NCBI GenBank assembly: GCA_004794655.1
Contig: SMMW01000585.1
Coordinates: 5,910,001-5,974,000, forward strand
Length of the DNA: 64,000 nt
From: Marisa cornuarietis
Lineage: Eukaryota > Mollusca > Gastropoda > Architaenioglossa > Ampullariidae
Direction: 5' to 3'
In this document: piece after piece, positions 11,521 to 45,967 of the stretch
How the letters are laid out: each line of letters opens with the position of its first letter
Position numbering within the stretch: position 1 is the first letter of the stretch
Made by a program: the position numbers and the translations under genes
Notes under the pieces: model-generated
Database searches by the model: none
What the model was told of the DNA's origin: nothing
Seen by the model: only the letters and a program-made list of their open reading frames with translations

Positions 11521-11571
<51 letters not shown>

Positions 11572-12985: not shown

Positions 12986-13034
<49 letters not shown>

Positions 13035-14225: not shown

Positions 14226-14283
<58 letters not shown>

Positions 14284-15689: not shown

Positions 15690-15720
<31 letters not shown>

Positions 15721-17319: not shown

Positions 17320-17378
<59 letters not shown>

Positions 17379-19727: not shown

Positions 19728-19821
19728 TGCACAGACTATGGTATGAGGTCAGTGACATCACAGATCTGCATGCACACGACATACACAAGGTGTTCAGGTC
19801 AGTTGAGACAGTAATTACCTG
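19728..19821. promoter_or_regulatory. 94-bp block nearly identical between modules A and B
   Basis: It differs by one base from 38,762-38,855 in module B, while flanks are more diverged and interrupted by module-specific insertions. It contains the CRE-like tgacatca and sits between the divergent sulfatase and peptide genes. A regulatory role is inferred from position and conservation only. Confidence 0.45.
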
Positions 19822-24448: not shown

Positions 24449-24568
24449 TATTTAAGAGTCAGAAAGCCAAGGCATGATCGGTCAGACTTCAACGACTGCT
24501 CACCGTCTCCTTTTTTCTGAAGACTCCCCTCAAAACATTCTTCTTAAGGACAAGTGCTCAGCAAAACG
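24449..24568 (+). promoter_or_regulatory. Promoter and untranslated first exon of peptide gene A
   Basis: A TATA-like TATTTAAG (24,449-24,456) precedes a conserved stretch that ends at a good donor (aaaacg|gtaagc, exon end 24,568). Module B has the same box and exon layout (44,357-44,486). The stretch starting about 30 bp after the box is inferred to be a non-coding first exon because it has no start codon in frame with the peptide and is followed by an intron of about 426 bp. Confidence 0.6.
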
Positions 24569-25016
24569 GTAAGCTCGACGGTTCTTAGGTTATTCTCTTG
24601 TCTTTTATAATATTAAAGGGAAAAAGTTGAAATTTTAAAGAAAAAAAATGAATGTAATTAGTGATAGAAGTTTTACAAAGGTTACGTTGGCTAGGCAAGG
24701 ATTTACTTCTCATACACTGACTACTAATCTTTTCTTCTCACACTCGTCAGGTTTGCTTTAATGTCAGGTCAGCAATGCCGTCTCGTTCACTTACATGCTC
24801 GTGAGAGTAAACTTCCTTGACTAGTGCTCGCTTCATCTTCCACGCTTTCCATTCTGTCCACACACACACACACACCCCTAAACTACATTCCTAACAATTA
24901 TGTTGTTTTTTGACAATCACTATCATTTAATGGAGGCTTAAGCATCAGAGTTCTAAAAATTATTGTTTACTAACCTTGTTTACTGCGCTTGCAGTAGTTT
25001 GTCCACACGATCCACA

Positions 25017-25872
25017 ATGCAGCGACTTCTCATCCTTGTCTGCCTGTTCGCGGCGATGACTTTTCCATACAGTAAGTCAAAACATTTTATTCGCCTTTTG
25101 TCTTTTTTCTACTTTGTTATTACCTGTTCCCCAAAATTGCTTACTTGAACACGAAGTTCATGGCATTATTTTCTTGTATTATTATAAACATTATTTTTAT
25201 TGTTAATATTAGTAGTAGTAGCAACAGTAGCAGCTCTGTAATATATTTGTTATTGTGACACAACAGGCTCATGGGTGTCCACACGTTCTTTACTAAATAT
25301 GTTTGTCTGTTACTACAGCTGAAGGCTTGTTTCTAGAACGGTCTACGGGGGCAGAGGGTGAACGACTGACTGATTTGCTGGCGAATATCAAAGGAAAGAT
25401 AAAAGAAGATCTTTTGACGGCAAAGCAGTCTGTGGCGGATGATGATCTTCAATTGATAAATTTGTTGTCGAACATCAACAAAAATCCAGCAAAACGGTAA
25501 ATGAATGTTTGTCAGAGGTGACTGCATAAAAGTCTACTCAGACCTTACATGTGACACAATACATGGTGGGATAGAGGCGTGTCCGTATCAAGGTGAATTA
25601 AAAAAATGTTGGTAAAGCTCTTGGTAAATTTTGAGATCCACCTGTAAAAATATATGTCGGACACTATGTCCTTAAGCATTTCATTATATTGAATGGGTTT
25701 TTTATGGTGAAAGGTCTACACAATCTTGTAATGCAGTTTTGATCTGTATAGTCAAAGAACAACACGACAAATTCTAAACTTAATTACACAACTAATTTAT
25801 TGTTCAAAAAGGTCTGAACCAGCATCAGAAGAGGAATCCATTTCTAGATTCATTAGAAGTCGGGCAAACTAA
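25017..25872 (+). CDS. Small secreted peptide precursor, copy A
   Basis: Coding exons 25,017-25,071, 25,319-25,496 and 25,812-25,872, behind a non-coding first exon; phases 1 and 2 agree at both introns. The product is 97 residues: signal peptide MQRLLILVCLFAAMTFPY, then a Cys-free acidic/Leu-rich region with amphipathic-helix words (LTDLLANIKGKIKEDLL, LQLINLLSNI). A dibasic KR follows at residues 78-79, then a C-terminal segment SEPASEEESISRFIRSRAN. A secreted peptide cut at KR is plausible. I do not recognise the family; no cysteine framework is present. It is divergent from sulfatase A and duplicated with it. The copy at 44.8 kb keeps the signal peptide almost unchanged but has a different mature region. 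Confidence 0.75.
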
Positions 25873-26010
25873 GAAATGCGAGGACTGATGACAGATGTCA
25901 GATGTCAGAGGTCAGAGGGCTGCTGACAGAATGTCCCTAAGACTGAAGCTGTTTTCTGCCGGCATGTTATGATTCAACCTGTTCGTAACGTGTGGAATTC
26001 TAAAAAAAAC

Positions 26011-26023
26011 AATAAAGAATAAA
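26011..26023 (+). terminator. Polyadenylation signals of peptide gene A
   Basis: Two AATAAA hexamers (26,011-26,016 and 26,018-26,023) lie about 140 bp after the stop. The equivalent place in copy B has one AATAAA at 45,962. Confidence 0.7.
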
Positions 26024-26029
26024 GAGAGC

Positions 26030-27750
26030 GCAGAACAAGGACGTGCGAGTAATATTATGTTGAGTGAGTTGTGTCGAGTGAGTTAACTGCTCGATTTTTA
26101 TTCAGCACTACCGGAAAGTTTTATTCAGCACTACCGGAAAGTGAAGACGACAGACACGACTAGACGAAAAACAGTGGCGACAAGATAGAGAAACGAAGCA
26201 CACTTGAATAAAAACTCTTTGCAACTAACAACACAAAATAAAAATAAAGCTTTCGATTTGCATTCCCACCCCCACCTATTTAATAATAACTTCATGTAGA
26301 AGTAGATGCATACTGAAGCGTGTGTGTTCTTCGATATAATTTTGACCTTTTTTGTAGGGAGGTATTAGCATTGCATACAGTTTGATTTATTTATTTTTTT
26401 TTTACCAAAACCGAAATTCTGGCTTTGTGTGTAGATTTGGTAGTATTTTGGTTTGCTAAAAAATATAAATGCCGTACGAGCGAAACATTTACGAGAACAT
26501 ACCAAGATAAAAAAACACAAAAGCCAACGTCTTGAGACACTGAAAGTAACCTCCTTCGTTCTTCTTTCCTTGTGTCTTCAATGTCTCAAGAAAAAGAAAA
26601 TGTTCTGCATGGTATGAATGAAAAGGAATTTTTAGTCTACATTATTGTTTTGAATACTGTCTTTGAAAACATTTATGCGTTTATATAAAAACTCATGATT
26701 CACTTGAAAAAGTAAGAAATATTATTTAGTAGCATGTCCACTTGTGAATCCCACAGCAGTTCTAATCTTCAATGTGTAATGTAAATAATAATTATTTAGA
26801 TGTTGTACCACATCTGCAATACCACTAAGAATGTTACTGACAGTTTCCGCTAGTATAGAACAAATATTCTGAAGGTTGAAACAATTTTTAAAAGTAATCT
26901 AAGGTCAACAACTCTGCTCTGGCCATCCACCATGTCCACTAATCATGACCCAGCTTCACTAGATCGGAAAGAATTAATAAATCTCTTTACACAGCAAAAC
27001 CTTGTGGGTAGACGGGGCTGATCACTTGTGTCTTTTCCTACATTAAAACAGTCTAGCAGTGGCCTGGTTCCAGTCAGCCTGTGACTTCACAACCGTTGAC
27101 AGTCAACACACAATATTCAGTATTTATTTTGCTTACCATGGAAAATAGTTCATCAAACACCCTGATACTGATTCTCTAAATCATTGAAAAAATAAAAGCA
27201 GAACATCTTTTGCTCGTTGCTGTGCGTTTGGGTAGCTGGTTATTTTGTTTGATAAAACCAGTGACTGATGTTTCTTCAGTGAGAGTTAGTGTTTATGGCA
27301 GATTTGAAAGTTAGTGTAATTGTTTGGGTTTGTAACGGGTGTCATATTCCAGTCACAAGAGTTGTCTAAGACGCTGGTTTAGCCCCATTTTCCGTTTATG
27401 TTATTGTCCTCTATGCATGTAGTGATGTCGACCCTCTGTTATGCGCACTAACTCTTATTATTGATGTTGTATTATTAAATGTAAAAAAAACTTGTAAGGC
27501 TACTACTGCCTTTTGGATAAATGCTAATTTATGATCCCGTAAACAAACCCGTGCTGTCTTTCGGCAGATCTGTATTCTCTCACATGCACACAGAGCTGCA
27601 CTTACACAAGTACACAGAGCTGCAGAGTGAAGCATGCCTCCACTAATTATCGACACAAAGTGAGGAATGAAAAGAGTTTCATTAGTGTTTTAAGAGACAT
27701 AGAGGAGGCAAGGTTTAAATTTATCGACAGTCGAAGTCAAGATGAGGAAA
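26030..27750. other. Junction between modules A and B, no gene recognised
   Basis: From 26.03 to about 26.6 kb the sequence still aligns with the end of module B (about 45.98-46.77 kb). Module B starts near 27.19-27.21 kb, where 'gttgctgtgcgtttgggta' repeats the start of module A at about 10,545. A 21-bp direct repeat starting attcagcactaccgg occurs twice at about 26,101-26,141. No coding exon is evident. Confidence 0.6.
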
Positions 27751-27932
27751 CTAGCACCACCCGGGGGTCCAGACGCCGCCCCAGTTCCTCGGGTTGCCCT
27801 TGGGGTCAACAGGTGAGTTCTGGGGCTTCACGCCGCTGGCCATCCAGTGATGAAGTCTGTTCATCATGAACATCAACATCTGAGGCTCCTTCTTTGCCAG
27901 GTCTTTCCGCTCCTCTGGGTCATCTGACAGGG

Positions 27933-27996
<64 letters not shown>

Positions 27997-30900
27997 CTTT
28001 ATATTGTCAGGTAGGTTTCGTCCTTCCACAGGTTATGAACTCTGTTAATTTAAATATCTTTTATTTATTGATTTGCTTATTTTATCTTTCATATTTCCCT
28101 TTTTGTCTTTTTTTGTAATTGAATAGTTATTGAATTTTGTAATCGTTAGTGATTTTTTTAACAAACGGCTAATATAAATTTGAATTCTGAACGAATGTCA
28201 GTTGACAAAAGCTACACCTTAGTTTGTCAGTTATTTCTAGTGACAACATTTATGTGAGCGCACTCTCTTGCGTAAATTAATCTCTGCGTGCGTGCGTGTG
28301 TCTGTGTGTGTACGTGCGTGCGTGCGTGCGTGCGTGCGTGTGTGTGTGTGTGTGTGTGTGTGTCAGATATCTTGTATATGTAGACATCTTGTTTGCCACT
28401 GTCTGTAATGTGTAGTTACTGTCTAAATATTTCAACATCTTTGCTTCAACAAAGCATACGCATTAGCCCTCACTACCACTTTACCTGTGGTAGAGAGAAA
28501 AGCCTTGCCACCGTAAAGCGGTGTGTAACACTTGCGCTGCGTCTAGCAATTGGTTTAAACCTATTTCTACTAACCAATCAGAGAAACCGTACGATTGTGA
28601 CATCAGTAAATTTAGTGCAACAAGGAGGTTCCTTTCATGTGTTTAGAAAATGTCTTCGTTTTGTGTGACTGGAAGAATAATGTATTTTGTGAGGGTAAAT
28701 TGTACCCGGCACGAAAATCAGCAATTCCATGCCGTGTAACGCATCTTGATGGTTGGGTCAGTATTTGTGCTCGAGTTCACCAGCTTTTATATAGATATTA
28801 ATGTCTACGTATTGAATTAAGTCAGCGAAGATTGGCAGAAATGCCGATATATTTCTTAATGAAATGTAGCGATTTTAAATATCGTTCACAAAATATCCGT
28901 CAACTTTGAAATGCTATAGCGTGAACCACGTGATAAATACCATGGGCGAACGAGGTGAATGACAAAGAGCAGTTTCTGCTGAATCCGATGGTATATGACA
29001 TTGCAGTCTCGAGTGTATGATAGTCGACCGCTTCCCGGGTAAAGAGACTCACCCTGTTTCAACATTTTGGTACGAGCGGGCAGTCACAATGGGGGCTAAT
29101 CAGTCAAGTATTGCTAAGACAGCGGAATAGATTGATGCGACTTGCTCATTCTGTGTTAGTATTTAATAATCTACCATAAACAAAATAAATCACATTTCAC
29201 ACAAGCATTCGTCCAATAAGTGTTCAAAGGAATATATTGACCTAGGTATTTCTGTATATTTGCGTCGGTGTGTCCCTCGTAGCCGCCATTGTCACTGCTC
29301 ATACCAACTTTTGAAAAATGGTGGGTCTCTTTGCTCGCCAAGGGGCTGGCTATCATAAACTCGACACTGCCATGTGATACACCACCGTATTCAGCAGAAA
29401 CTGCTCTTTCATGTTCACCTAGGGAACCACTCGGTATTTTACACATGGATCGAGTTACGAGATTTCAAAGTTGACAAATATTTAGCGTCGCCTGTTACTG
29501 TGTTTTAGAACCGTCACATTTCATTAAGAAATACATCAGCATTTTTATCAATCATCGCTGACGTAATTCAATAAGTATACTGCATTATCCATGCGAAAGG
29601 TTGTGAACGCGAGCACAAATACCGATCGAACCATCAAAACGCGTTACACGGCTCATGGAAAATGGCCACCGCGCGACTGATTTTAGTGCCGGTTACCATT
29701 TACTCTCACAAAATACACATTATTCATCCAGTCACACAAAACAAAGATATATTATTAACAAATGACGAACCGTTGCTCTTTATTGTGATTAATAAGTGAT
29801 ATTTCTGTTCCTTAGAGTCTATACAAAATCTTTGAAATGAAAAAGAGTTATTTTTGAGCGATCGCCCACTTTCCACCAGCGGTAAAGCGAGCTTACCGGC
29901 ACCTACATTAAAACGAAATAAAATTATTTAATAAAGATTCAAATTTAAATGAGCTTTTGTATCAGTGTTTCAAATTTGAGCCAAATCTGTCCAGTAGATG
30001 AGAAATTATACTGTTTGAAGTTTGTTGCCCTAAAACGTTTCATTTTTCCACCTGAAACATTGATGATTTTGAAATATTTGAAGCTGCATATCTTCCAAAA
30101 AAGACCTTGCAAGATTGTAGAAAAGTAAGGACAACAGTATATAATGGTTATTTTGAAAATAACTTTTGAAGGTGTATTTAGTAAAGTATTATTTGAAATT
30201 AAAGACTGGAAATATAGTGTCTTCACGCAAATCGACCAAGCGCAAAACTGTGTTTTTTCACATTTTGATGTACTTATTCCAGTCTGTCATTTTTAAAATA
30301 AGTTTTTCAGTCACTAGAGTAGATAGCCAGTGTTGGTAACTTCTCATACAAAGTACTTGGGGACTTAGATTTCAAGATGCTAAATATGAGAGCTTCAAAC
30401 ATGATCCAAAATAAGGTAGTAAATCTGTTTCGCAATTCACAAACTTCAAAGAGGAATATCTCCAAAACTAATAAACATAGAGACTCCGTTTTTGTTTGTT
30501 TTTCTTAAATTTTCTTGTACGTTCGTGTGCCAAAAATGCTCTTTTAACAAAAATTGATTTTGTGTGCCGATACATACTATGATGGCAAAATATTCAAACA
30601 CGATTTGATAGAAGCAGAGGCTAAAGTAAAGGTAGGTCATCCTGCTATTGGCATGCAAAATATCAATCCCATCTCTTTATTTACAACTTTAACATTGGCA
30701 GTAAGCATTGTATAGCTATTAGCAAATTTCGGCCCAGGATCTCAGGCAGAAGGTTCAAAACTGCTCAGGAGCTGAGGGCTCAAAGGGTTAACGAGACAGT
30801 TCTCGATATTGATGTTTATTACTTTTAAACTCACCAAACATTCATGGTGTTAATGTCCAGTAAGCACAACCCAGTGACTTACTTCGAATGTTGTACAGCT

Positions 30901-33387
30901 GGGGCTTCCATCTCTGTGGGTGCACCGCCTGACTACTGGTGTCGAGGTTGTTCTTTACTGGAAGTGGATACCAGCCGTTGACACCGCCCGGAGAACCTGT
31001 CAGCAGCTTGTAGTCCCCGTACCTGATGGCGGTGCTGTTTATGATGGTGTCGATGTTGTAGACAAATTCGGTGCGGCTGCTGGCGGCGCCAGTCCTCAGC
31101 ATCTCCCACTGGTTGACGCCGTCGATGTTCGACTCTGTCATCGAGTTATCGAGTTTTACATGACAAGCTATTGCATCGTGTCTTTTATTGTATAGATAGA
31201 AACTTCTTTTCAAGACCCCCTTAAGTTTTCACATTTTTGATGAGTTAGCTTCACGAGTAGGTAGTTTGTTCTGTCGTTTCTGCTCACACAAAAGCCTCAG
31301 TTGCAGACACCGCGCAGAAAACCTATTTTCCCCCACCCTCATCTCTCCCTCACTTTTGGGCCACTTGGTGAAGGGAGCGGTTTACACAGACCACTCTGCA
31401 CCGCTAACGCTTGCTTAGTGAAAACCTTTGTGTTCCACTGGAGAGCAGATTTCAGACACTAGAGTACGTGCCTGAGGAGGCTGCTCCGGATCTCGTAAAA
31501 AAAATAAAATAAGACGACGGACGCCAAACTCGTAAGACACCAACACCTACTTGCAACAGTAAAGCAGGGTAAGCTGGTCTGGTTTCGTCATGTGACACAG
31601 TAAGACATGTTGTGCTTCAAGGTGCCTCTGTGAGTGACTAGAACTATTGGACTGATCGGCAGCTGCGAAACTTGCTCTCTGTTGCCTAAGACAGGTGGGC
31701 CTTCTCACCTGCTGCGCCTACCTATGTAATCTGCCATCCACCCACCCCACCTCGCCGCTTTCGACGACCACGTCCAGTCAAGGTATGAATAAAGAATGAT
31801 TCAATGTATTTTGGGGGATGGTGTTTCGGGTGTAGGTGGTCTAAGGTGAAAACAATTTCTTACCTGGCCGTAAACCAGCGAGGTGGAGAATGGTGGGGAA
31901 CCAGTCCACAGCATGTATCATCCTGTAAACCAAAAGTGGTCATGATATAAGTTCATGCTGTGTGTTTAATGTACATCTTGTCTGTCCGCCTGTTTCACTG
32001 CCACTACAATCTGGTAGTTGGTGATCATGTCTGCAGGTTACCGATCCAACCACATCCAAACTACGATGTGCGTGAAATATCTATTGGTGTGTGGTATCCT
32101 AATATTACATACACAGACATTACATCACGAACGCGTGCAAGGCATGTGCAGGTGCACAGACGGATTTGTGTGCATCACGTACTCATGGTTGGTGTAGCCA
32201 GTCCGCTGCAGCAGGTTTCTGCTCCACACGAAAGCCACACCCCGGGTGCCTCCTTCCCAAAAGGTTGTCTTGCCACCCCGGAGTGGCCAGTTGTTACCCC
32301 CATGTGACACTGATCCGCCGTTCTTAAAAACAAATTTCTGATTTCCACATACAATATTTACACGATCTTTCACTCACTCACTCACTCACTCACTCACTCA
32401 CTCACTCACTCACTCACTCACTCACTCACTCACTCACTCACTCACTCACTCACCATAATGTCATATTCCAGTCACAAGAGTTGCCCTTCTGCAGACCTAA
32501 GTGTTACCCGGGTCAGCCGGTGCACTTGATACTCACATCAGTGGTGAAGATAATCAGCGAGTTGTCCAGTAGTCCCGCACGGTCCAACGCCGCCGTGATG
32601 TTACCGAATGCCTCGTCCATCATGGACACCATTCCTAAAGGAGGGTGCACACAAAAAACACATATAAACCTTCCAATAAACCCACGTGTTGCTGGTCTCC
32701 GAGAAATTGAATACTCCATTATCGTATTTAAAAGACTACCCGTCGTAAGCGGTCTGGATTCAGTATATTAGTTGCGATTGTGCACAAAATGTTTTCGAAG
32801 ACTCCCATTTCTTTTCAACGTAGTGTTTTTTTTTTATAATTTTGCTTGTAACTTAGCACCTCTCAAGTTATAACTGTTCATTAGGGTTAATAAAGTTGGT
32901 CATTTGTCATCTATGTTTAAAAGGTTTTAGTCTCTCTTTGGCTTAATTCCCAATCCACAACATTCATGGGTGAAGGTAAAAGTAATTCCCTAACCTGTCA
33001 GTTGTAGGGGATTGAGATGTCTGAGTAATCGTTTCAAAGCCATCTTTGTGGTTGCGGGGCTTATCTTCTCAACCTCGTTACCTTAGCTTCCAGAAATCTC
33101 TAAGAAATCTGGTCCCCATTAATTAGCTGGGTCAGTTGTCAGACGGGAAGTAGTTCGCTGCACCAGGTGGACTCAGATGCAAGTGTTCTGCCCCATGGGT
33201 TCTTTCCTTTTGACCTCAGCACACATTCACCGCAGTATTACCTGTAAGTGCGTTTACCAAGTACGTGCTCGTACTAATACTTACCTGTCGCTACTCACTC
33301 GCCGCTGTAAATACTCACCACTGTAAACGCGCCTCGGTTTGGCAGTTGTGCTACTGTACATGTCTTCGTATTTCACGGGAACCTGTA

Positions 33388-33442
<55 letters not shown>

Positions 33443-35788
33443 TATCCATTTGCCTAATCTCCATGTTCACCAACATCTCAATTAGGTGCAGCTTCTTATG
33501 GAAGCAAGCCCTTTGTATCGCTAGCTGTCATTTTAGTTATCGCCACGAAAGAGACTCTAAGGACTAAATATCCGGGGTTTTTTTTAGTGTAACAGATAGG
33601 ATAAATCACATCACAAGATTACAAGCACTTGAACAAGAATCCCATGGCATTTGTTTTCAATTGTAAAATACTCGCCAGTGATGCTACTCGGTGTCAGTAT
33701 GCCGAAGAAAGAAATATTACTGAATGGTCAACTTTAGGTATCTTCTGGAGGGGTTTTTATTTGTTTTTATTTGTTTTTTTATATCAGTGGTAGAAGAACA
33801 TTAGTCAGGCTGTTGGTAGCAGTCATCTACTGGGCTTCATGACGATGGGGCAAAATTCCAGACGGGGAGCGTGCCTTTCTTTCCGATATCAGTCTACAAA
33901 ATGGAATATGGAAGAGCCAGATGTTAAATAACAAAAGTTTAAACATGCAACACTCGTTGATACGACCTTGGCCTTCCGACTAAACGGAATGTGACAAAAG
34001 CACCTGCCACAGGTTTACCTGCAGCGGGTAGTGGCACAACTGGAAGGGCAGGTAGAGAAAGAGTGGCTTAGACTTGTCGTGGTAGTGTATGAGGTTGATC
34101 GTGTGCTCAGTGAAGAGATACTGAAAAAAAAACAAATATCAAACAAAAGGCATTGATATACTAATGTTTTTACACCAGTATATCCAAAACTTACTTTCAC
34201 CTTTACCTTGGGCGTGTCATGAAACGAGTGTTCAAGAGCCACCATTACTGAAAACACAACGGGATCTTATCAAACAGTCTTTACTGGTTAAATGTTTAAA
34301 TAATAATAATAATGAGAGAGAGAGATCTCATCATCATGATTGTTCTCATCATTACGATGTATTTATTAAGTATTGTGTCCAGCCAAAGCCAGTCACACCA
34401 CGCGTAGGAAGGGAGCTAAATAAAGACCATCAGCAAAAAGCCGCAATACTGAGCTAATTTGTGATAATAGAACCTAAAGATGTTTACACAGTCATTGATG
34501 TTCCTTAATACGTATCCTCTTACTGCAGATATTAATACATTGATGCACCTTGATATGTATCCTTCTGATTTACCTTAAATGTTTATACGCTGATGTAACT
34601 CTATAGTATCCTTCTTACTTACTGTAGAGTGAGTATGCTTCGGATCCTCCGCAACAGACTTGTTCCATCGGAGGTCGTATCCCCCAGCTGCACATTGCAC
34701 CGATTTGCTGTAAAATGTTTGGGTTTTGTGGTTTTAGGGAGAGGAGGGGTAGGAAAGTTTACCATTAAACTCCACAAATTAAGTAGATTTTACGTGAAAA
34801 ACGTCTTCCTTAAACAATTTTTAAAATCCCTGATTCAAATAAAAACGGGTTTAAAACCACAAAAGACTGCATTCAGAAAATTTGTTGATGATATATTGCA
34901 ATACTATAAACTTTGACATTAAAATTACCTGGTATAGTTACTGTAATGTTAGAGATAAGAAGTACAATGCCACACTAACGACCTAGTGCCATTACCTGGC
35001 CCCAGAGACAAGTTAAATGCAACACCTGTGCGATGGGTGTAGTAGTCGTCCTTGCCATTGTAGTAGCCGTAGAAGCTGTCGAACCCGCGGTGCGTTGGCG
35101 TGTATTTCCAGTTGCACATGCCCAGATGCCACCTGCGGACCAAAAGACATCGTGCGACTCCGGTCGTAAGACAATAAAGGTAGCATCCAAATCCATCTGT
35201 CCTCTACCTGCTACATCGACACATGGCCGCTTGTCTCACCCCTGCTGCCAGTCACCTCAGAAGATAGCGACTGAGTTTATAAATAGTGTAGGGAGCCGTT
35301 GGGCAGTGGTACAAGGTAGGTGGCGAGAACGCGATAAGAATTAGGGTCGCCACCGACATCTCTCGTCTGAAGAGAATTTGACGACAACAACAATAAGAGG
35401 CAGCCTGCTCCCTTCTATCACTCCTGAGCCCGTATATAACCATGGAAGTAAAGAATTTACTTTACACTTGCCTGAAATTTGTCGACTGAGTTTACCCCTT
35501 TTGCAGGAAAAACCATCGACTAATTTTGTCCTTGTTCCTGTTGTAGTTGTTCTAAAGAGCAAGAAATATTATGTATTGCATAAAGGAAGCTGGAGGATAA
35601 AACACTACTCACTTGCCCACAATGTGTGTCATGTAACCTGCTGTCTTTAGATGAGCCGGCAGCATCTTGAAATTTAGCGGCACGAACCGGGGCTGGCCCT
35701 CAATGATGACTCGGTGCTGTTAACAATAAACATAGCCCTCCTGTCTGGTAATACTTATCACAGCCTCTAGGCTTTAGAATGACCTTTG

Positions 35789-35826
<38 letters not shown>

Positions 35827-37120
35827 ATATGTGTGTGTTTATGTGTGTGGGAGTTAGAGAAAGAGAAAGTGTAAGTGTGAGAGAAAGCGTGTGTTATATA
35901 TATTTGTATAGTTTTGACGTTTCAGTATGTCTTTAATTGCTCTCAAACGTGTTCCTCTAATCTTCACTCGATCGAATTTTTTCGGAAAAGAGTCTTTGCA
36001 TTTTTCATCAAGATATTACGTTTTTAATACCTGATGACATTACAGTTGGTAAACAGTGACTATTAATTGCGATACACAGAAAGACACTCAGACATTTATA
36101 TAAATACCTGGAGTCCTGTGTGGTACGGAAAATATCCAGTCATAAACGCACTACGAGATCTGAAACAAACAATAGAGTGGTATATTACCTAAATAGTTTT
36201 TACATTTTGTGGAAATGTGCCAGTTATTTTTATTTTCAATGGAAGCACGTCTTACGGAGAGCAGAAATACTGGACGTAGGAGGAGTTGAGGATGACCCCT
36301 GCCCTGGCGTATCTCTCCAGATTGGGTGTGATCATACCCGGGTTGTGCCAGCTCACATCGTTCCACCCTGATAAAACATAATCATATATTTAAGTAGAAA
36401 ACTTTTGAATCTGGGAAAGAAAGAAATTTTAACAGTATTAACAAAGTCGTGAGCACAGAGTTATACCCTCGGATAGTTCAACCTATTAATAAAACTCAGC
36501 ATAACACGTTCTCTAGTATTTAACACCAAACTTTTGCTTATGTGTGTGTGTGTGTGTGTGTGTGTGTTGTGTATGTTTGTGTGTGTGTGCATGCATTTAT
36601 AGAGTATGTATATATAGTGTGCTTAGGGAGCGTCATTTACTCAATTTGCGACGGCACACGCACGCACGCACACACACGCACACACACACACGCTCAAGCA
36701 CGCACATACAGATATTAAATACCGTCATTTTCACCTCTCTACGCACAGCTTTGCAATAATAAGTTGTATTTAATCAGCTGTATTTAATGTGTCGAATACA
36801 CATCCTTCGTTGTGTTACGGTAGTAATTAGATTGGTCTAGAGCAGTACGTCAAACAAAGCTGGCAAAAATAGTTTTTATAAAATCAAACTACAAAAGATT
36901 GAAAAGAATTAATTTGTTAATATTGTCATAGCTGTAATTTCCAGTATGTAAATAAGGATTAACAGCTTTAAATAGTTTCAGATGTAAAACTACAGAGTTA
37001 AGCTTTCTCACCCAGGTCATCAGCAACCACAAATATAATATTTGGACGACTGGGAGCAGACGCATGAGCGATGTAAACAAGGACCACCGCAGTAATCGTC
37101 AGTAACCAGACTTTGAACAT
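27751..37120 (-). CDS. Arylsulfatase B-like sulfatase, copy B (13 coding exons)
   Basis: Paralogue of copy A with identical exon sizes and phases, 488 residues. Exons in gene order: 37012-37120, 36256-36367, 36108-36159, 35613-35716, 34996-35132, 34623-34687, 34019-34120, 33319-33382, 32537-32634, 32183-32322, 31864-31922, 30883-31134, 27751-27923. Signal peptide [20 protein letters not shown], metal-binding VVADDLGWND, formylglycine site CSPSR, GKWHLG, CHYPLQ, FTTDNGG and [12 protein letters not shown] are intact. N-glycosylation sites include NSS after VIL, NLS, NKS and NIT. Donors are closer to consensus than in copy A (gtaaga after exons 2 and 11), which favours B as the better-spliced copy. 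Intron 12 (about 3 kb) holds a 2.3-kb mobile insertion and a 61-bp (AC)n tract that nearly touches the last acceptor. Substrate specificity is inferred from family only. Confidence 0.9.
27935..27995. repeat. (AC)n tract abutting the last-exon acceptor of sulfatase B
   Basis: On the transcribed strand this is about 30 GT units, separated from the acceptor AG (27,924-27,925) by nine bases. Copies A and the relic have only short GT/CA runs here. Confidence 0.95.
28467..30787. mobile_element. 2.3-kb insertion in intron 12 of sulfatase B: piggyBac-like ends and a long inverted repeat
   Basis: Absent from copy A, where flanking intron sequence is continuous (agctaacga). In B the insertion runs from CCCTCACTACC after 'ttag' to ...GGGCTCAAAGGG before 'ttaa'. 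CCCT-type ends at a TTAA-like target suggest piggyBac. The left part (about 28,467-29,910) folds into a long imperfect hairpin. For example 28,655-28,760 is the reverse complement of about 29,640-29,755, and 28,955-28,990 pairs with 29,395-29,425. No transposase frame is visible, so it is non-autonomous, or two nested elements. Confidence 0.6.
32373..32453. repeat. (CACT)n microsatellite in intron 9 of sulfatase B
   Basis: About 20 CACT units, at the same position as the shorter array in copy A. Confidence 0.95.
32979..33200 (-). repeat. Diverged SINE in intron 8 of sulfatase B
   Basis: Counterpart of 13,817-14,050 in copy A ('cctaacctgtcagttgtagg', 'cgttaccttagcttccag'). It shows that the SINE predates the module duplication. 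Confidence 0.75.
33390..33439. repeat. (CA)n adjoining the exon 8 acceptor of sulfatase B
   Basis: On the transcribed strand a (TG)n tract of about 25 units ends about five bases before the acceptor AG of exon 8, leaving almost no normal polypyrimidine tract. Confidence 0.95.
35792..35824. repeat. (TG)n microsatellite in intron 3 of sulfatase B
   Basis: About 16 TG units, at the site of the longer array in copy A. Confidence 0.9.
36541..36720. repeat. (TG)n and CA-rich repeats in intron 1 of sulfatase B
   Basis: A (TG)n run at 36,541-36,567, a second TG patch to about 36,590 and a CACG/CA-rich patch at 36,655-36,695. The matching intron of A has one short (CA)n near 18,127-18,147. Confidence 0.85.
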
Positions 37121-37192
37121 GGCGGTCGTTAAAGACGAGATGTCGAAGTGGAAGACAAAAGTTTCGCTGCAGGTCAAGTCGCAAGATGAGCG

Positions 37193-37218
37193 TTAAATGG
37201 CCAACCTTCGTGACGTCA
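37193..37218 (-). promoter_or_regulatory. Putative core promoter of sulfatase B: CRE and degenerate TATA-like box
   Basis: The palindromic TGACGTCA (37,211-37,218) is retained. The TATA-like box reads CCATTTAA (37,193-37,200) instead of CTATTTAA in copy A. Immediately upstream, B lacks about 34 bp present in A. Confidence 0.5.
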
Positions 37219-38761
37219 CGGTTCAATAAAGGTTATAAAGTTGACAGCATTTTGATAAGGTTACCACTTGACAGCCAACAACACATTGGAGAAAGCTGAG
37301 GCTGTCTGTCGCCACAAAGATGCCCGCGGCTCCCCAAACACTCTGCCCCGTATTACGCCTTAAAGGTCTATGAGAGAGCAAATTCTTCTCCCAATCACAG
37401 GCTTCGTGTACACTGTATACCCAAATCTGGTTAAATAATCTACCTTGTGCTCTTAAGATACTCGGCTATAAGCATCATTATGCATAGAAAGCCTGATACT
37501 TATGACATCACAAATGTTTACAAATATCCCACTTTGATATTTGCTCGTGGTCCACAGGTCTATTTTGGATTGAAGCCTTGACAGTGTGAAAATATCTGGA
37601 TACATTTAATCATTTTTTTCAGTGTAAACATATTTGTTTAGATTTGATCATTTGATTACATCGTATTCATTAGATAACTCGACTCTGAACATGAAAGTCT
37701 TCAGTGAAATTTATGGGGCCTCTGGCTAGGAAACGTCCCTTGAGCATCCAACAGAATAAGCAGATACCTATTTATAAGCGGAGGTAGCGGGGGTAAACTC
37801 TTAGACACAATGAACCTCTGACGTAAAGAGGTCTTGAGCCTATAGTAACATTTTATTTCTTGAACATGAAAGGATAACTTATTCACTCGTATTCTGGGCC
37901 AGATAATTACCACCCAAAATTTGAATCTAAAAGACATTTAACGATAAAAAGACGGCAAGATGGAGACGATATCTATCTTGTGCTCAAGAAAGGGTTCGTT
38001 GAAAAGCATTCTTCATCTAGGTTAAGCCATTGTTATTTCATCATTAATTTCACAGTCATGACAACAAACGTCCACACGTTTAAACAAAGCTTAACCAAAA
38101 TAAATGGTTGAATCTGATCATAATATTGTGTGTAGTGGTGAGGAATAAGACGTGAAAAGACTTCATTACATAATGTAGGCAAAACGTTAACAGCCAATGA
38201 AACTAATTAAAATAGACTGGGCAATAATGCTGCACAACACGATAACAAGAACTCCCGCTAACACATAAAATCAAAGTACCGCCAATACAGCACCAAGTAA
38301 ACAAACTATCAGCCTGTACAGACCAAAGGTAAACAATGTTTAGTCTGGTAATACGAGCGCTCACTGACCTGTTACTAACGGTGTAAGAGAGATCATACAA
38401 AGGTCAGACGCGAGGGAAGCTCTTGGGAACCTTTGCAGCAGCTCTTGTTTGATCAAATGTCAATGTACATGCAAAGTATGTGAAAAACTTGTTTAATGTT
38501 TGGTGTATTCTGAGTAATTCTTTATTCTGTCTGTAACGGTGATTTTTAGCATAGATCGACCTTTTCTTTAATTTCTTGCTGGCGGCAGACAACTGGACTT
38601 TTCTTTGGATCATCACATGTTGTAATTACGGTCCTTTACTGGAGTTGTGAGAATTAGCACCCGTATGTATGCAAAGCCTTTACCTACACCAAGCTAACAT
38701 GCTTGCATCTGGTAAACAGTCTTTATAAATAGGTTCTGTGGTGAAGAGTTACAGAATTCAC

Positions 38762-38855
38762 TGCACAGACTATGGTGTGAGGTCAGTGACATCACAGATC
38801 TGCATGCACACGACATACACAAGGTGTTCAGGTCAGTTGAGACAGTAATTACCTG
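38762..38855. promoter_or_regulatory. Module B copy of the 94-bp conserved block
   Basis: One mismatch against 19,728-19,821. The left flank differs because about 0.47 kb present in B before the block is absent in A. Regulatory function is inferred. Confidence 0.45.
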
Positions 38856-39130
38856 TATACATCGCTCATTTGGACAGCAGCAAAAACGTTTTTTTAACAG
38901 AATACACTGTGATTACATGTTGCCAGCAGTCTTCTCTTGCTCGCTTTCTGCTTATTAGCTAACACCCTTATTAACTCCTTGAAAAAATGCAAAATAACTA
39001 TTTGAAACTCAGTTCCTCGCCTCTTTCTTTGATTATTATTATAATAACTTTATTATATGATCACTTATATTGGTTAACGAGGATCTATTGATAATGACAT
39101 GGTGTACTAAATCAGTCCGTTGGACCAACC

Positions 39131-39183
<53 letters not shown>
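39131..39183. repeat. (GACA)n microsatellite
   Basis: About 13 GACA units. Module A has diffuse GACA-rich sequence in the corresponding region. Confidence 0.95.
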
Positions 39184-39184
<1 letters not shown>

Positions 39185-40216
39185 AAACAAGAAGGGAAAA
39201 TAAGCTACACAGGCTGACAGCTATGCTGCTAGAGAAAAGAATCCAGTGTACATCCATCTGCCACCCCTGTAAATTGAGTAACACGTCCTACAGACATTCT
39301 TATTGCGATTAGAAGTCATTAACACCCGGGCTCTATATCGACCTGAAGTCCTAAAGAGGGGAAGAACATTTGTCTTGTGGGAAGAAGTTATTTGTAACCG
39401 CATGCTGCGCGGATTTGACGAAATGTGTGCATTGTGTGATGAGGTGGCTACTCGTTTTCCTTCCACTTTACATGACTTTTGTACTTTGTGCTGAGAGCAG
39501 CGCATGGATTTCAGGTGTCAAGTACACCTCAGTTTATGACAGAAAGACGACATAAGGGCGAACGGAGTTTTCAAGGAATGCCAGCACAGTATGAACTCAT
39601 TAATTATGTAGCTTTTTGTTGTTGTTTACAGAAAACACACAAAGGATTCTACATCTCAGTATTACACATATTATGCAATCAGTTTGTATACCACTACTGT
39701 AAGCAAAAAAAGAATAATAAAAACAGAATAAATCAAAGAGAGTGGAAAAGCTTACTAATCATCACACGAAAATAACACTACACAGCTAAACAGGCCGCGA
39801 CATTTAACAGAAGAGTTTGTAAAAAAAATATGCCAGCAGCATGAAATAATATTTATTACGAAGATAAATGATATGTGCTTCCGTTTATACACTATCGTGA
39901 AGCTGGAGATTTCAAACTCATAATACATTTTGCTTGTTACAGTAGTTCCCAAGTTTCAAGCAGAGCATATGTCAACGAAAGAGCTACAAAATCGTATTTT
40001 ATGCAATTGAGCATGAATCGTTCAATTATCTACTGTGTTTGTATAGACTGCCACCCAACATTAGTAACAATCCAACTGATATAGCATGTTCTTATTCAAA
40101 TTTTTAGGTATGCTTAACCACTGTAAAGCTCTTATAGGGCTGGCGTCTCTCGATCGTTATTTGTGCTTTGGATTCAATGTTCCCGTTAAAGTTGTGAAAG
40201 AATAGCTTACCAAATA

Positions 40217-40925
40217 CAGTGGAAACTCGATTATCCGGCTTAATGATCGGCGTCCGTCATCCGGATAATCAAAAATCACGGAAAATTGAAAATAATTCTA
40301 AAAATTCGCAAATGCTAGAATATGTGCAATATCACGCACTGTTTGATTTTTTATGTTTAATTCGATGAAAGCGTGATAACTTATTCCCCCGTTTCGGCAC
40401 TTTCAACAATTTGAAGTTTTTCTAGCAATTGAGAAAACAACTATCTTTATTTTCACACCCGCACCGGACCCCGACGTTTTATCAAAAATTTACACGAAGC
40501 CGCTTTGTAACCTCGAGATGTGGACGCCAACTGAATGAACTCGGAACAAGAGGTCCCCCACACGATCTTTTCCAAGAAAAGCTTTGAAGCAGAAGACAAA
40601 TGTTAAAACTTATTAAAGAATGAGAGTCGTGGGAATTTGAAAAAGAATCGGAACGAGTCGTCTGCATCGGATTCAATCTAATGGTTCTTCACAGAAGGGG
40701 ATCACCTGGCCGGTGCTCAGTTGCTATACTTTCAATCCTTTTAGAATAATTCTCAGAAGCTCATCGACAAAGAAAACTTAAGCTGTGACATACGTAGGGT
40801 GCATTTCTATAGTCGGAATTTATGGCGGCAAAATATTGGCGGTCTACCAGTTTGTTTGTTTTTTAAGCGATCCTGGATAACCGAATGCACGGTTAAATGA
40901 AGACCGGATAATTGAGGTTCCACTG
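40217..40925. mobile_element. pogo/Tc1-mariner-type MITE
   Basis: Ends CAGTGGAAACTCGATTATCCGG and, inverted, CCGGATAATTGAGGTTCCACTG match closely. Both flanks are TA, the Tc1/mariner/pogo target duplication. The 709-bp interior has no long frame and no recognisable transposase, so it is non-autonomous. It is absent from module A. Confidence 0.85.
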
Positions 40926-41040
40926 TAATAAGAACTCAAAAATGGTTTTAAAGTTGGCGCTTAAATCACATTCTGTGCAGAGCGCGCAGATTGTAGCTGA
41001 TGCATCCCACCCGTCCTATGTCCTGTTATGTCTCATTCCA

Positions 41041-41137
<97 letters not shown>
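41041..41137. repeat. (GAT)n microsatellite with attached retroelement end
   Basis: About 32 GAT units. The following 'gtccttttataatgcgcc' resembles, inverted, the tail region of the LINE fragment at 47.5 kb (gcgcatt...catcatcat), so the array probably grew from a retroelement tail on the minus strand. Poly-Asp, poly-Met and poly-His frames across it are artefacts. Confidence 0.8.
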
Positions 41138-41639
41138 TCCTTTTATAATGCGCCAGTTTCCGCATCGCAGAGATACGCTCAATGCGCAGTGATCCCAATA
41201 TCTGGAGTCAGGTATAGACTGTCCGGACCAGAACTTCCTGTTGAAAAATAGTTGTTTGCTAATAGGCTTCCAGAATTCCACCGTTGCTCGTTTCGGGACT
41301 AATACTAGTTGAATGTGTCCTGTGAGGGTCATGTACAGTGCGCGTAGGTGACCAAGCATCCACGTATTTGTCTGGTAGAATCTATGGTGAATCTGCAACT
41401 TGGGCAGTGTCTGTGTATGTGATACAAAGGGAGTGTGGAATAAAGAAAGAAAGGAAGAGAAAGCAAACGAGAACTAGAAGCTGTGTGTATGTGGAGGAAA
41501 TTTACTATAACCCACAGTCCAAGCAGCAGCGTCTGCCAGTATGGGTGTGAGTGTGATCGGTATTTGTCGAATAATTCGTAACCATAATCACGCCAAATTG
41601 CTCGTATAGTATCGCTTGATTAATAAATCAAATCTTCTT

Positions 41640-42345
41640 CCGCTCTCTCCGCCAATTAAATTGATCCGCCTCGCCCACAGATCCAGTAACACTTTAATTT
41701 TTTTTTTTTTTTTTTTGGGGGGGGGCTAAGTCAGAAAATAATTCTATAATTATGACATTCTTTCAGGAAGCCCATTTTGCAATGAATTCACGTGTCTGAT
41801 TCTTATCTTTATAGACTTTCGCTTTTGGTTGATGTCTTTTTAAGTGTTTTGGCCGGAACAGTTCCAAGTAAGGGGAGACCACTAGATGCCTATGCTGCTA
41901 TTCAAAATCAAGAATAAGTTGCCTCCCGTTAATTGTGTTTTTATCGACCATGTCAACTCCCTATTTCTTTCGTGATACCATATGACGATAACTTCTAGCT
42001 ATAGCGACTTTGCACCGAGGACCTGTGCCGATCAAGGGAGGAAATGAAATCAAGACATTAGACTGTACCCACACAGACTGAGCCCTGCTACACTTAAAAT
42101 CTGATCAAAAAAAGGAGAACTCGAAATGGTGTCAAGAGCTGGCGCTAATGTCTCAATCACTCTCTCCACTAGAATTGAGCCGCCTCACCCACCGACCAGT
42201 AACTTTTTTTAAAGTAAAACACACAAGTATTTCTAAACTTATAACACTTGTTACTAGTTGAGAAATAATATTTCGCATTAAATTGACTTGTCAGATTCTT
42301 ATCACTCCGGACTTCATTCAGCTTGCTGAGTCCTTCTCAGCAATG
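41640..42345 (+). repeat. Two copies of an unclassified interspersed repeat
   Basis: Copies at about 41,640-41,945 and 42,165-42,345 share 'gccgcctcacccaccg' and 'gtcagattcttatc'. The first also has 'ggggagaccactagatgcct', shared with 47,540-47,880. A poly-T/poly-G run (41,698-41,726) interrupts the first. Confidence 0.55.
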
Positions 42346-42610
42346 TACTTATTGTGTTCAACATCACTTCAGGTTGATAGGAAATTATGTTATAGGATCG
42401 TTTGATGTATGCTGTTTATATAAAAGGAGAGCTTTTAATCAACATTAGAACAATCTCAGGCAGAAAAATACACACTCAAGCTTACAGGACATCGCGTGAG
42501 AGACAGCTCATGACTTGTCTGAACTTCATCGACCTCCAGTCTCTTCTTAATATCGGAATTTGAAAAGTTTTCTATTTATTCTTCCTGAAATGTCTTGTCG
42601 AGGGTGTAAA

Positions 42611-42876
42611 AAAGGTAAAGGTCATCCCATAACCTTTTCAGGTCGTAGGGGGAGGGAGGTGTTAGAGACCCCACTTTTCTCGGGGCCAGCTTTTACATGA
42701 GGGTGGTGCCAATCTCCTCTCCCTCGCTGCCTTACCTTCCCCAACCCTCTATGGAGTCAGGTACCCATTCCCGTCAGCTGGGTCGACTGGGGGAAGTTTG
42801 CTGCGCTTATCCGGAATTGATCCAGCGCGCTCTCGGTTCGGAAGCCAGCGCTCTAACCACTCGGCCATCCGCTTCC
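42611..42876 (-). mobile_element. tRNA-derived SINE, full-length copy with target duplication
   Basis: Flanked by the direct repeat cgagggtgtaaa (42,599-42,610 and 42,877-42,888). The tRNA-like head is at the right end on the minus strand and the A-rich tail at the left. It provides the uninterrupted version of the site that carries a hAT MITE in copy 1 (168-344). Confidence 0.85.
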
Positions 42877-43617
42877 CGAGGGTGTAAATACAACTGAAAT
42901 AAGGCATCCCGTGAGTGGTACTACCTGACTAATGGTTATGCCATGCCTGGTCTACCATAAGTGGACTGGGCAGGTGCCAAGGGTGAAGGCACCGATGTGG
43001 GTAGTGTGTGTAATATGGAGAAAATGATGAGTGTGATTTTTCTTTTGGTGACGAATAATGCTCGACCATCGTGAAATGATTCTCAACGAATAACGTAAAC
43101 TACAGCTGCATGAAGTCTGTTATTGATTGCTCGCTTTTCCCAACGTAATATTTTTCAACTATGCAATGTTTTATTGCTAAATATGCCATAAAATGCCGTT
43201 TAAAAAGCTATGATCGACATATGTGACTTAATATGGAAGCTGTGCTTTGAACTACTGGTATAAAGACAGCTGCTACCATCAAAGATAGGAGCAGTCTTGA
43301 TCTCGTATTGAACTGCTGCTACAAAGAAGGCTGCTAGCATCAAACTTTCCCTTTTGCTTATTTTTTTTTCTCGCCTTTTTCAGGTATTTTCTTCTTTGCT
43401 TCCCTTACGATTTCCTGCATGTTTATGAGTGTTCAGAAAGAATGTGTGAAGAGAGAAAGATGCCTTGAGCGGTGTGAGTGACAAGGAAATTCTTGTACAA
43501 ATAACTGTCTGGAAACTCACTGAAATTTATTCTTCGTAATTCTTTTTCTCTTTTTTGTAATAAATATTTTTGACAGATTAAAGACTTTAGAAGAGAGAAA
43601 TAGACGTGTTACACCCT

Positions 43618-43648
<31 letters not shown>

Positions 43649-43804
43649 GACATTTCTTTAACCGTGGAACCCATACACTTCGGTATGGCTCCAAATATGC
43701 TAACAGATAAAGTAATAGACTTTATTTGGCTTTTTAAGTTTTTTAATAAGGGTTCCACCCAGGAATTAGCTCCTGTGCTTCAGAACTTTAAGCACTAATT
43801 GCAT

Positions 43805-44080
43805 TGAAATCCATGGTGATGTTACCTTTATTAGTACAGTGCAGCATGAAACATTAACAAGAAATACTTGCAGTGGAATCTAGTGTGGGTGGTGATGCTT
43901 GTTATTAGCACATTGCAGCGCAAAATTGTACAAACATTACTTCAGTGGAATCCATCGTGTTGATACGTGTCATTAGCACATTGCAGCTGGAAATATTTGC
44001 AAGCCTTGTAAGCATTACTTGCAGTGGAATCCATTTTGATGATACGTGTCTTTTAGATCATTGCAGCGTGAAATATTTAC
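43805..44080. repeat. Four-unit tandem repeat upstream of peptide gene B
   Basis: Units of about 60-85 bp share 'cagtggaatccat', 'gatacgtgtcattagcac' and 'attgcagcgtgaaatattt'. Module A has one diverged unit near 24,070-24,130. The array ends about 280 bp before the TATA-like box. Confidence 0.65.
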
Positions 44081-44356
44081 TTTAAGTCTATGTTCCTCCT
44101 CCCACTTCCCTGACGTTTTGCACACATCCTACGCACGTGCTTACACAAACGAGCCTCCAGAAAACTACACACCTGTTACAGAAAGAAGTCAACAAGATAA
44201 ACAGGTCTGTATGAGCAATTCGAGTGGGGGGAGAGAGCGTTTGACTGGCAGCCCGGTAGCTCAGTGGACAGGTGGGGTTTTCCTCCTTTCATCACCTTAC
44301 TCTTTTATCGAAATATCGACGCTAGTAACCACTTTCACATCCTAGCGACCAGTGAG

Positions 44357-44486
44357 TATTTAAGAGTCAGAGAACCGGGACATTATCAATAAGGCTTGCT
44401 CAAGTGCCCACCGTCTTTTATTCTGAAAACCGCTCTTGAAATTCTCATCAAAACTTTCTTCTTACGAACAAGCGCTACAGAAAACG
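44357..44486 (+). promoter_or_regulatory. Promoter and untranslated first exon of peptide gene B
   Basis: TATTTAAG (44,357-44,364) is followed by a non-coding exon ending at aaaacg|gtaagt (44,486), the same layout as module A. The upstream shared stretch 'gcagcccggtagctcagtgg' resembles a tRNA A-box but has no full tRNA fold. Confidence 0.6.
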
Positions 44487-44750
44487 GTAAGTTTTTCCCC
44501 TGCTGGTTATTCTCTTGCCTTTTACAATCTTGATGGAAAGAATTTGAAAATTTAAAGAAAACAATTCATTATACTGCATTTTTTGTTAAAAAATATTAAT
44601 GTTTTAATAGAGATTTTTATTTAATTACATCACCTTGCTTTTCGACAGTAAATATTAGTTGATGGAGGCCTTAAGCATCAGTAGTCAAAAGAATGTTGTT
44701 TAACTGATCTTGTTTACTGCTCTTGCATTAGTTTGTCCACAAGATCCACA

Positions 44751-44945
44751 ATGCAGCGACTTCTCATCCTTGTCTGCCTGTTCGTGGCGATGTCTTTTCC
44801 ATACAGTAAGTTACGACATTTTATTCGCTTTTTTCTATTTTTATTCATTTTTATTAACTTATCTGAATAATAATTACTTATATCCTTAACTTAAGCACAA
44901 AGCTCTTGGTAGCAGTTTTGAGTGATTATTTTTCTGTTTACATCC

Positions 44946-45015
<70 letters not shown>

Positions 45016-45834
45016 TTCTCTTATAATTATTAGCAGCAGTTGTAGTAGTAGATATGGTTTGTGGTGCTAGAGGCTGGTCTGTTTTTCCCATGTTGTATAC
45101 TGAGCATGTTCGTATGCTACTATAGCTGGAGGGAGTTTTAGGCGGTCTGTGCCGATGAACCCACAACTGCGGGCGTTGATGGAGGAAACCTTTGAAGACG
45201 CAGAAGACGACCGAGAAAGCAAAGAAGGGTATGAGAATATTTGTGTGATGTGACAATGGATAGAATGCAGATGAGTCCTTTAGCGATGACACATAGGTCC
45301 CTGGCCGTCCAACAGATGGACACGTTACTTATTGCATTACTTATCACCTTACTCGTTACTTAACAAATTTAGAAAGAGTCGGCAACACAGTATTAGGTTT
45401 TGTCTTCGATATATCGTGTAAAACACTCGGTTGACCCCTTAAAGTTCACCTCCCGGTCTGCTAGGCCAGTAGTCTACACCTTGAGGTCAGTAGAATAATA
45501 GTTTATTGTAAGATTAGGGACTGAGCGTGTTCGTGTGCACATGTTATATTATATGGGAGGAAAGACGCGAGTCCATCTAAAGATGAATGAACGGGGGTGT
45601 TCGTGTGGCTCTAGATGAGTGGGTGGGTGGTATGAACCTCTATAAAAGTATGTCGGACATTATGATTTCAGCACTTCATTTTATTGACGGGTTCTTTCAT
45701 CGTACAAAGTCTACACAAACGGTTAGCGCAGTCTTAACCTCTACATTCAAAGCCCAACACGACAAATTTTGAACTTAACTAGAATATTGGTTTACTGTTC
45801 ACAAAGGTCTGGTTCATCTTCGGAAGTGTATTAG
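44751..45834 (+). CDS. Small secreted peptide precursor, copy B (diverged mature region)
   Basis: Coding exons 44,751-44,805, 45,126-45,228 and 45,807-45,834, with the same phases as copy A. The product is 61 residues: signal peptide MQRLLILVCLFVAMSFPY (16 of 18 identical to A), then a short Cys-free region with TGGSFRRSVPMNPQLRALME, an acidic run (EDAEDDRESKEG) and the end SGSSSEVY. There is an RR pair instead of A's KR. Exon 3 aligns with A only over about the first 30 nt and is 75 nt shorter. The non-coding 5' part of exon 2 appears to use an AG three bases downstream (44,730-44,731) because A's 'gcag' reads 'gcat' here. Function is unknown; a secreted signalling or effector peptide is inferred. 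Confidence 0.7.
44947..45016. repeat. (ATC)n microsatellite in intron 2 of peptide gene B
   Basis: About 23 ATC units, absent from copy A. It produces a poly-Asp frame on the minus strand that is not a gene. Confidence 0.95.
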
Positions 45835-45961: not shown

Positions 45962-45967
45962 AATAAA
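45962..45967 (+). terminator. Polyadenylation signal of peptide gene B
   Basis: AATAAA about 128 bp after the stop, in sequence that aligns with the copy A signal. Confidence 0.65.

What the first reader, a model, noticed from the sequence alone, without database searches (positions are those of the whole stretch)
25017..45834. Peptide gene pair: conserved signal peptide, unrelated mature regions, introns more conserved than the mature-coding exon
Seen: the exon carrying 5'UTR plus signal peptide differs by about three bases in 77 between copies. Promoter, the last part of intron 3 (e.g. 'caacacgacaaatt') and 3' regions also align. Exon 3, coding most of the mature peptide, aligns only over its first 30 or so bases and is 178 nt in A against 103 nt in B. 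Frame, phases and splice sites are kept in both. In a duplication recent enough for introns to align, this points to fast replacement or diversification of the secreted part. This is the mode known for secreted effector or recognition peptides in molluscs, such as venom and reproductive proteins. Function is not shown by the sequence.
Basis: partly seen in the sequence, partly recalled or inferred. Interest (0 to 1): 0.87.

Follow-up and report, generated by a model that had tools for sequence, protein, structure and literature searches.

The report
Snail peptide genes: shared signal, divergent cargo
A stretch of what is likely a snail genome carries two intact-looking copies and one broken copy of a small gene predicted to make secreted peptides; the part predicted to export the peptide is almost unchanged between the two intact-looking copies while most of the peptide part has diverged beyond recognition, a pattern already known from other secreted peptide families.

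Summary
Genes A (ATG 25017) and B (ATG 44751) share promoter, four-exon layout, intron phases and a signal-peptide exon differing at 3 of 77 bases. Exon 3 is 178 vs 103 nt and shows no detectable A/B similarity after 9 codons (38 of 200 codon shuffles as good). New: (1) a third, inverted copy C (minus, 20.9-20.2 kb) has lost exon 1, ATG, signal peptide and exon 3; (2) A's exon 3 holds an in-frame 87-nt internal repeat (0 of 500 codon shuffles); (3) the duplication is not recent: A/B noncoding identity is about 60-78%, and 15 of 49 noncoding windows align as badly as exon 3. The clear anomaly is the conservation of exon 2; 'introns more conserved than the mature exon' and diversifying selection are not established. 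No homologue was found, although the neighbouring sulfatase finds Pomacea at 81%. Best reading: a small birth-and-death family of predicted secreted, cysteine-free peptides with a conserved export exon, a mode known from Hessian fly SSSGPs, myticalins and conotoxins.

The parts
24449..24458 (+). TATA-like box of gene A (TATTTAAGAG)
   Evidence: read; identical string in B
24480..24568 (+). gene A exon 1, 5'UTR (5' end approximate)
   Evidence: donor CG|GTAAGC at 24569, read; aligned with B
24995..25071 (+). gene A exon 2: 22 nt 5'UTR and predicted signal peptide (coding 25017-25071); a second acceptor would start it at 24998
25319..25496 (+). gene A exon 3: most of the predicted mature peptide; open in phase
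25341..25391 (+). internal repeat in exon 3 of A, unit 1
   Evidence: 33 of 51 identical at offset 87 (from the run score of 15), 0 of 500 codon shuffles
25428..25478 (+). internal repeat in exon 3 of A, unit 2
   Evidence: one search gives 12 of 1000 for unit 1 against shuffled unit 2
25812..25872 (+). gene A exon 4, coding end with stop; KR site at the exon 3/4 junction
26011..26016 (+). polyadenylation-like signal AATAAA of A
   Evidence: read
44357..44366 (+). TATA-like box of gene B (TATTTAAGAG)
   Evidence: read
44390..44486 (+). gene B exon 1, 5'UTR (5' end approximate)
   Evidence: donor CG|GTAAGT at 44487, read
44729..44805 (+). gene B exon 2: 5'UTR and predicted signal peptide (coding 44751-44805); the only acceptor shared with A starts it at 44732
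45126..45228 (+). gene B exon 3: most of the predicted mature peptide
45807..45834 (+). gene B exon 4, coding end with stop TAG
   Evidence: translation; end read
45962..45967 (+). polyadenylation-like signal AATAAA of B
   Evidence: read
20731..20936 (-). copy C: upstream block, 75% identical to A (80% in the aligner)
20682..20719 (-). copy C: last bases of exon 2, its donor and the start of intron 2; ATG and signal peptide missing
20231..20684 (-). copy C: parts of intron 3, exon 4 and 3' region; exon 3 missing

Best explanation
A and B are likely two working members, and C a dead member, of a small gene family predicted to make secreted, cysteine-free peptides, in which a separately spliced exon holding the 5'UTR end and the predicted signal peptide is strongly conserved while the mature-peptide exon seems held only to an open frame and fixed intron phases. 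Exon 2 would send the product into the secretory pathway (inferred from its hydrophobic N-terminus; no signal-peptide program was run). The mature part may be trimmed at basic sites (KR in A, RR in B; inferred). Shown: 3 of 77 differences in exon 2, kept phases, the loss of exon 1, ATG and exon 3 in C, and an in-frame 87-nt internal repeat in A that could explain the 75-nt length difference. Predicted only: a short tail followed by one helix in both exon 3 products. Copies would arise by local, partly inverted duplication and die by deletion. Whether exon 3 diverges by positive selection or by weak constraint is open. As to role, a gland or reproductive-tract secretion is my best guess, from the mode of evolution alone.
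For: Exon 2 identity 74 of 77 against 24 of 30 on either immediate flank; at most 3 differences in 77 has probability 7e-7 if divergence were 25%. 0 synonymous differences at 13 synonymous sites (probability 0.02 at 25%). GT/AG of introns 2 and 3 in both copies. A's exon 3 is open in the right frame while only 73 of 5000 nucleotide shuffles are, and its other two frames hold 6 and 5 stops. 13 of 58 noncoding indels are multiples of 3, whereas the exon 3 difference, 75, is one. The donor end of exon 3 in A has its best ungapped match in the B locus at the expected donor, 25 of 46, next best 23, so the exon sits in the same place. Internal repeat in A. C lacks exon 1, signal peptide and exon 3. 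Models of the exon 3 products alone: A tail 10 + helix 11-54 (mean pLDDT 88.7), B tail 11 + helix 12-32 (80.3).
Against: No transcript or protein evidence. Codon usage learned from the neighbouring sulfatase exons favours the proposed frame only in the two signal exons, not in exon 3 or 4 of either gene (2 of 6 exons). B's exon 3 being open is weak evidence (952 of 5000 shuffles). No homologue by protein search or Pfam; A against the PDB gave two chance-level rows only, E 1.5 and 6.3. The helix models are single-sequence predictions without a shuffled control, and amphipathicity is not above shuffles (A 553, B 730 of 1000 as high). B's exon 3 does not match either A repeat unit beyond shuffles.
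Confidence: 0.58

Rival explanations
1. Positive (diversifying) selection rebuilds the mature exon, as in conotoxins, SSSGPs and myticalins: exon 3 changes faster than neutral.
For: Exon 3 after nt 30 has z 2.2, where neutral simulation at 25-35% divergence with indels gives that or less in 3-9% of cases; of the 4 changed codons among the alignable first ones 3 are non-synonymous (read); internal duplication in A. Precedents: SSSGP, conotoxins.
Against: 15 of 49 noncoding windows align as badly; at 40% divergence 32% of neutral windows do; no dN/dS can be computed where no alignment exists; only two intact copies and no orthologues.
Confidence: 0.25
2. Two settled peptide hormones or neuropeptide precursors that took different functions after duplication; exon 2 is kept only because export is needed.
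For: Dibasic sites (KR in A, RR in B), small precursors, alignable promoter.
Against: No similarity to any protein found, no Pfam family; no shared processed peptide between A and B; neuropeptides are usually conserved in the processed part (recalled).
Confidence: 0.12
3. Non-coding or decaying locus: exon 2 is conserved as DNA or RNA (synonymous sites included) and exon 3 is not really translated.
For: 0 synonymous changes at 13 sites and 21 of 22 UTR bases kept; exon 3 and 4 codon usage not coding-like; C is already dead.
Against: A's exon 3 is open against 73 of 5000 shuffles and its repeat is in frame; phases and GT/AG of introns 2-3 kept in both copies.
Confidence: 0.12
4. Gene conversion, not selection, keeps exon 2 alike.
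For: Synonymous and UTR sites are conserved as well; concerted homogenisation was proposed for SSSGPs.
Against: The high identity stops at the exon edges: 24 of 30 on each flank against 74 of 77 inside. A conversion tract has no reason to stop there.
Confidence: 0.08

Closest known systems
Hessian fly small secreted salivary gland protein genes, SSSGP-1 family (PMC2955719; outline, abstract and passages seen)
   Same: Clustered tandem and inverted copies; conserved promoter, UTRs, signal-peptide region and intron; first intron at or within the end of the signal-peptide region; mature regions sharing little similarity
   Different: There noncoding regions are highly conserved (SSSGP-1 5'UTR scores 87-98) and positive selection was measured; here noncoding parts are only about 60-78% identical, only exon 2 is near-identical, and there are four exons. 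Insect, not snail; no sequence relation tested
Myticalins of mussels (PMC5577615, PMC12294457; passages seen; abstract starts)
   Same: Mollusc, cysteine-free peptides, conserved signal peptide, hypervariable mature part, 5'UTR-only exon 1, a phase-1 intron, pseudogenes including one expected to have lost the signal-peptide region
   Different: Myticalin exon 2 holds signal peptide and whole mature peptide, which is cationic, with a C-terminal anionic extension; here the predicted signal peptide sits alone in exon 2 and the predicted mature parts are acidic (net -2 and -5)
Conotoxin genes (PMC10561478; passages seen)
   Same: Snail; mainly three exons; mature-coding exons reported, from another paper, to diverge about three times more than flanking noncoding regions
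   Different: Disulfide-rich (PMC11860864, start of abstract); here no cysteine in either predicted mature part, and no homologue found

Membership tests
Conotoxin superfamilies | cysteine-rich mature peptide | tested here: not met
   0 cysteines in both predicted mature regions. Cysteine-poor conopeptides exist (recalled), so this is not absolute
Conotoxin superfamilies | signal sequence related to a known superfamily | tested here: not met
   no homologous protein, no Pfam match; the search needs shared exact 5-residue words, so a distant relation is not excluded
Myticalins/modiocalins | signal and mature peptide together in exon 2, cationic mature peptide | tested here: not met
   exon 2 holds the predicted signal peptide only; net charge -2 and -5
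Myticalins/modiocalins | 5'UTR-only first exon and a phase-1 intron | tested here: met
   gene models predicted from sequence only; the phase-1 intron here follows the signal peptide
SSSGP-like mode (not a sequence family) | signal-peptide region conserved, mature region largely not alignable between clustered copies | tested here: met
SSSGP-like mode (not a sequence family) | noncoding regions clearly more conserved than mature-coding region | tested here: inconclusive
   15 of 49 noncoding windows as poorly aligned as exon 3; simulation 3-9% at 25-35% divergence, 32% at 40%
SSSGP-like mode (not a sequence family) | positive selection in the mature region | not testable with these tools
   no alignable pair or orthologue
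Neuropeptide precursor | dibasic-flanked peptide conserved between copies | tested here: not met
   KR of A at the exon 3/4 junction is absent in B; no conserved core

The most novel reading that the evidence does not exclude
A previously undescribed snail peptide family in which a frozen export exon (conserved even at silent and UTR sites) carries interchangeable single-helix cargo: the mature exon is rebuilt by in-frame internal duplication and rapid turnover while helix start and intron phases stay fixed, so that selection keeps shape and processing, not sequence.
Probability: 0.2. Interest if true: 0.62.

Novelty: new member of a known kind. Interest (0 to 1): 0.42.

Why it matters
If expressed, this would extend the 'conserved signal exon, divergent cargo' mode of evolution to a snail lineage related to Pomacea, with cysteine-free acidic peptides, a dead copy and an internal duplication that show how such cargo changes. 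It gives a compact test of whether the mature part is under diversifying selection or merely weakly constrained.

Tried and rejected
Exon 3 of B as an alternative exon hidden in A's introns, or the reverse: no DNA match beyond itself (E up to 1) and no translated match better than E 1.6, in the window only. B's exon 3 as one unit of A's internal repeat: unit 1 631 of 1000 and unit 2 293 of 1000 codon shuffles as good; a single 25-codon gap model is no better than shuffles (295 of 1000). A unit duplicated together with the sulfatase: sulfatase introns are 85% identical, A/B noncoding about 60-78%, so the two duplications differ in age, unless the sulfatases were homogenised. An unanchored whole-locus alignment misplaced exon 3 in B's longer intron 3, so for exon 3 the anchored segments were used and the exon 3 and early intron 3 rows were dropped. 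A local alignment of C to whole A and B was dominated by scattered short blocks in its first half and was not used for C's structure; some searches were. Amphipathic helix: not above shuffles. Rfam: 0 matches at gathering score. Fold search was not run, because a single helix would match very many chains. Literature: no paper of the held library has the signal-peptide or exon strings searched. Searches gave the precedents but no description of this family in the rows listed; only listings and starts of abstracts were seen, apart from four papers (PMC5577615, PMC12294457, PMC10561478 passages; PMC2955719 outline, abstract and passages).
Full report
What is there. Two genes on the plus strand, A and B, share a TATA-like box (24449 and 44357), a 5'UTR exon, exon 2 with 22 nt of 5'UTR and the predicted signal peptide, exon 3 with most of the mature part, exon 4 with the stop, and an AATAAA signal. 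Intron phases after exons 2 and 3 are 1 and 2 in both. A encodes 97 residues and B 61. The first 18 residues differ at 2 positions. B has lost the first of two adjacent AGs at the intron-1 acceptor; the second, 3 bases on, is shared.

How alike the parts are. Exon 2: 74 of 77. Immediate flanks: 24 of 30 each. Noncoding parts, aligned columns only: 71-78% for promoter and introns, 74% for the 3'UTR and 81% for exon 1, with many gaps, by segment alignment; 60-71% with the local-pair aligner for promoter, exon 1, introns 1-2, later intron 3 and 3'UTR, and 55% further downstream; 65-66% in three-way blocks. Coding exon 4: 21 of 30 aligned bases (z 3.5), 61 nt in A against 28 in B. Exon 3: taken whole, only 1 of 200 codon shuffles scores as well, because its first 9 codons align with gaps; the rest is no better than 38 of 200 shuffles. 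Of 49 overlapping 73-nt noncoding windows, 15 align no better than exon 3 after nt 30; several lie in a long B-specific part of intron 3 or a microsatellite in intron 2. In simulation, neutral windows with indels fall this low in 3% (25% divergence), 8% (30%), 9% (35%) and 32% (40%) of 150 cases each; without indels 0, 0, 0 and 9%. So most of exon 3 has diverged at least about as much as neutral sequence, but faster than neutral is not established. Exon 2 is what departs from neutrality.

A third copy. On the minus strand, 20936 to about 20231, lies C: an upstream block, then only the last bases of exon 2 with its donor, the start of intron 2, parts of intron 3, exon 4 and the 3' region. The TATA-like box, exon 1, ATG, signal peptide and exon 3 are gone. 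C is nearer to A (80% and 76% in two blocks) than to B (62% and 64%); in a short third block the values are 68% and 70%, the other way round. A and C therefore look like an inverted, head-to-head pair of which one died.

Inside exon 3. A carries a repeat at offset 87 nt (29 codons, in frame): 33 of 51 positions identical, 0 of 500 codon shuffles as good; shuffling only the second unit gives 12 of 1000. B shows no such repeat (469 of 500 shuffles as good) and does not match either unit beyond shuffles. Single-sequence models of the exon 3 products give a tail of 10 or 11 residues and then one helix, 44 residues in A and 21 in B. The kept start of the helix is suggestive; no control was folded, and charged, leucine-rich strings tend to be modelled as helices (recalled).

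Is it a gene? For: A's exon 3 is open against 73 of 5000 shuffles; the phases and GT/AG of introns 2-3 are kept; the internal repeat is in frame. Against: codon usage favours the frame in only 2 of 6 exons, the two signal exons; B's open exon 3 is weak evidence (952 of 5000). No expression data were available.

Surroundings and source. Between and beside the copies lie two arylsulfatase genes on the minus strand (18626-11097 and 37120-27757; core pieces of 13 exons compared: dN 0.041, dS 0.087; introns 85% identical). The sulfatase's best match is Pomacea canaliculata at 81%, followed by Littorina, other Pomacea and Batillaria proteins (best 120 listed), so the window is likely from an apple-snail relative. 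The same database gave no relative of A or of an A+B profile (11 candidates, none at E 10 or better), which with the sulfatase as positive control says that no annotated relative sharing enough exact words is held; small genes are often unannotated (recalled).

Comparison with the known. The same layout of conserved export part and divergent cargo, in tandem and inverted copies, is published for Hessian fly SSSGPs. Myticalins are cysteine-free mollusc peptides of the same mode with pseudogenes. Conotoxin mature exons are reported to diverge more than their flanking noncoding regions. The present genes are not filed under any of these sequence families: no cysteines, acidic, different exon content, no homology found.

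Verdict. A real and tidy example of a known mode in a likely new sequence family.

Noticed in passing
window 11097-18626 and 27757-37120 (minus): Tandem pair of arylsulfatase B-like genes, best match Pomacea canaliculata 81% for the second copy.
   Followed up: partly
window 8571-8690 (minus): A further stray last exon of an arylsulfatase, 70% identical over 40 residues to exon 13, suggesting a third, broken or partial sulfatase copy.
   Followed up: no
window 345-600 and 42627-42883: 94% identical 257-bp repeat, probably a transposable element.
   Followed up: no
window 19725-19821 and 38759-38855: 97 bp at 98% identity upstream of the two sulfatases, more alike than their introns.
   Followed up: no
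window 28635-29098 and 29280-29765: Inverted repeat, 74% identical over 491 columns, within the last intron of the second sulfatase, probably a mobile element.
   Followed up: no
window 52078-53100 (minus): 341-codon open stretch with a sub-threshold MAM-domain match (E 3.8e-05, 24 bits, cutoff 26.4).
   Followed up: no
window 54293-54785 and 62280-62781: Duplicated stretch, 71% identical over 507 columns, with no Pfam match in the two open frames tested.
   Followed up: no
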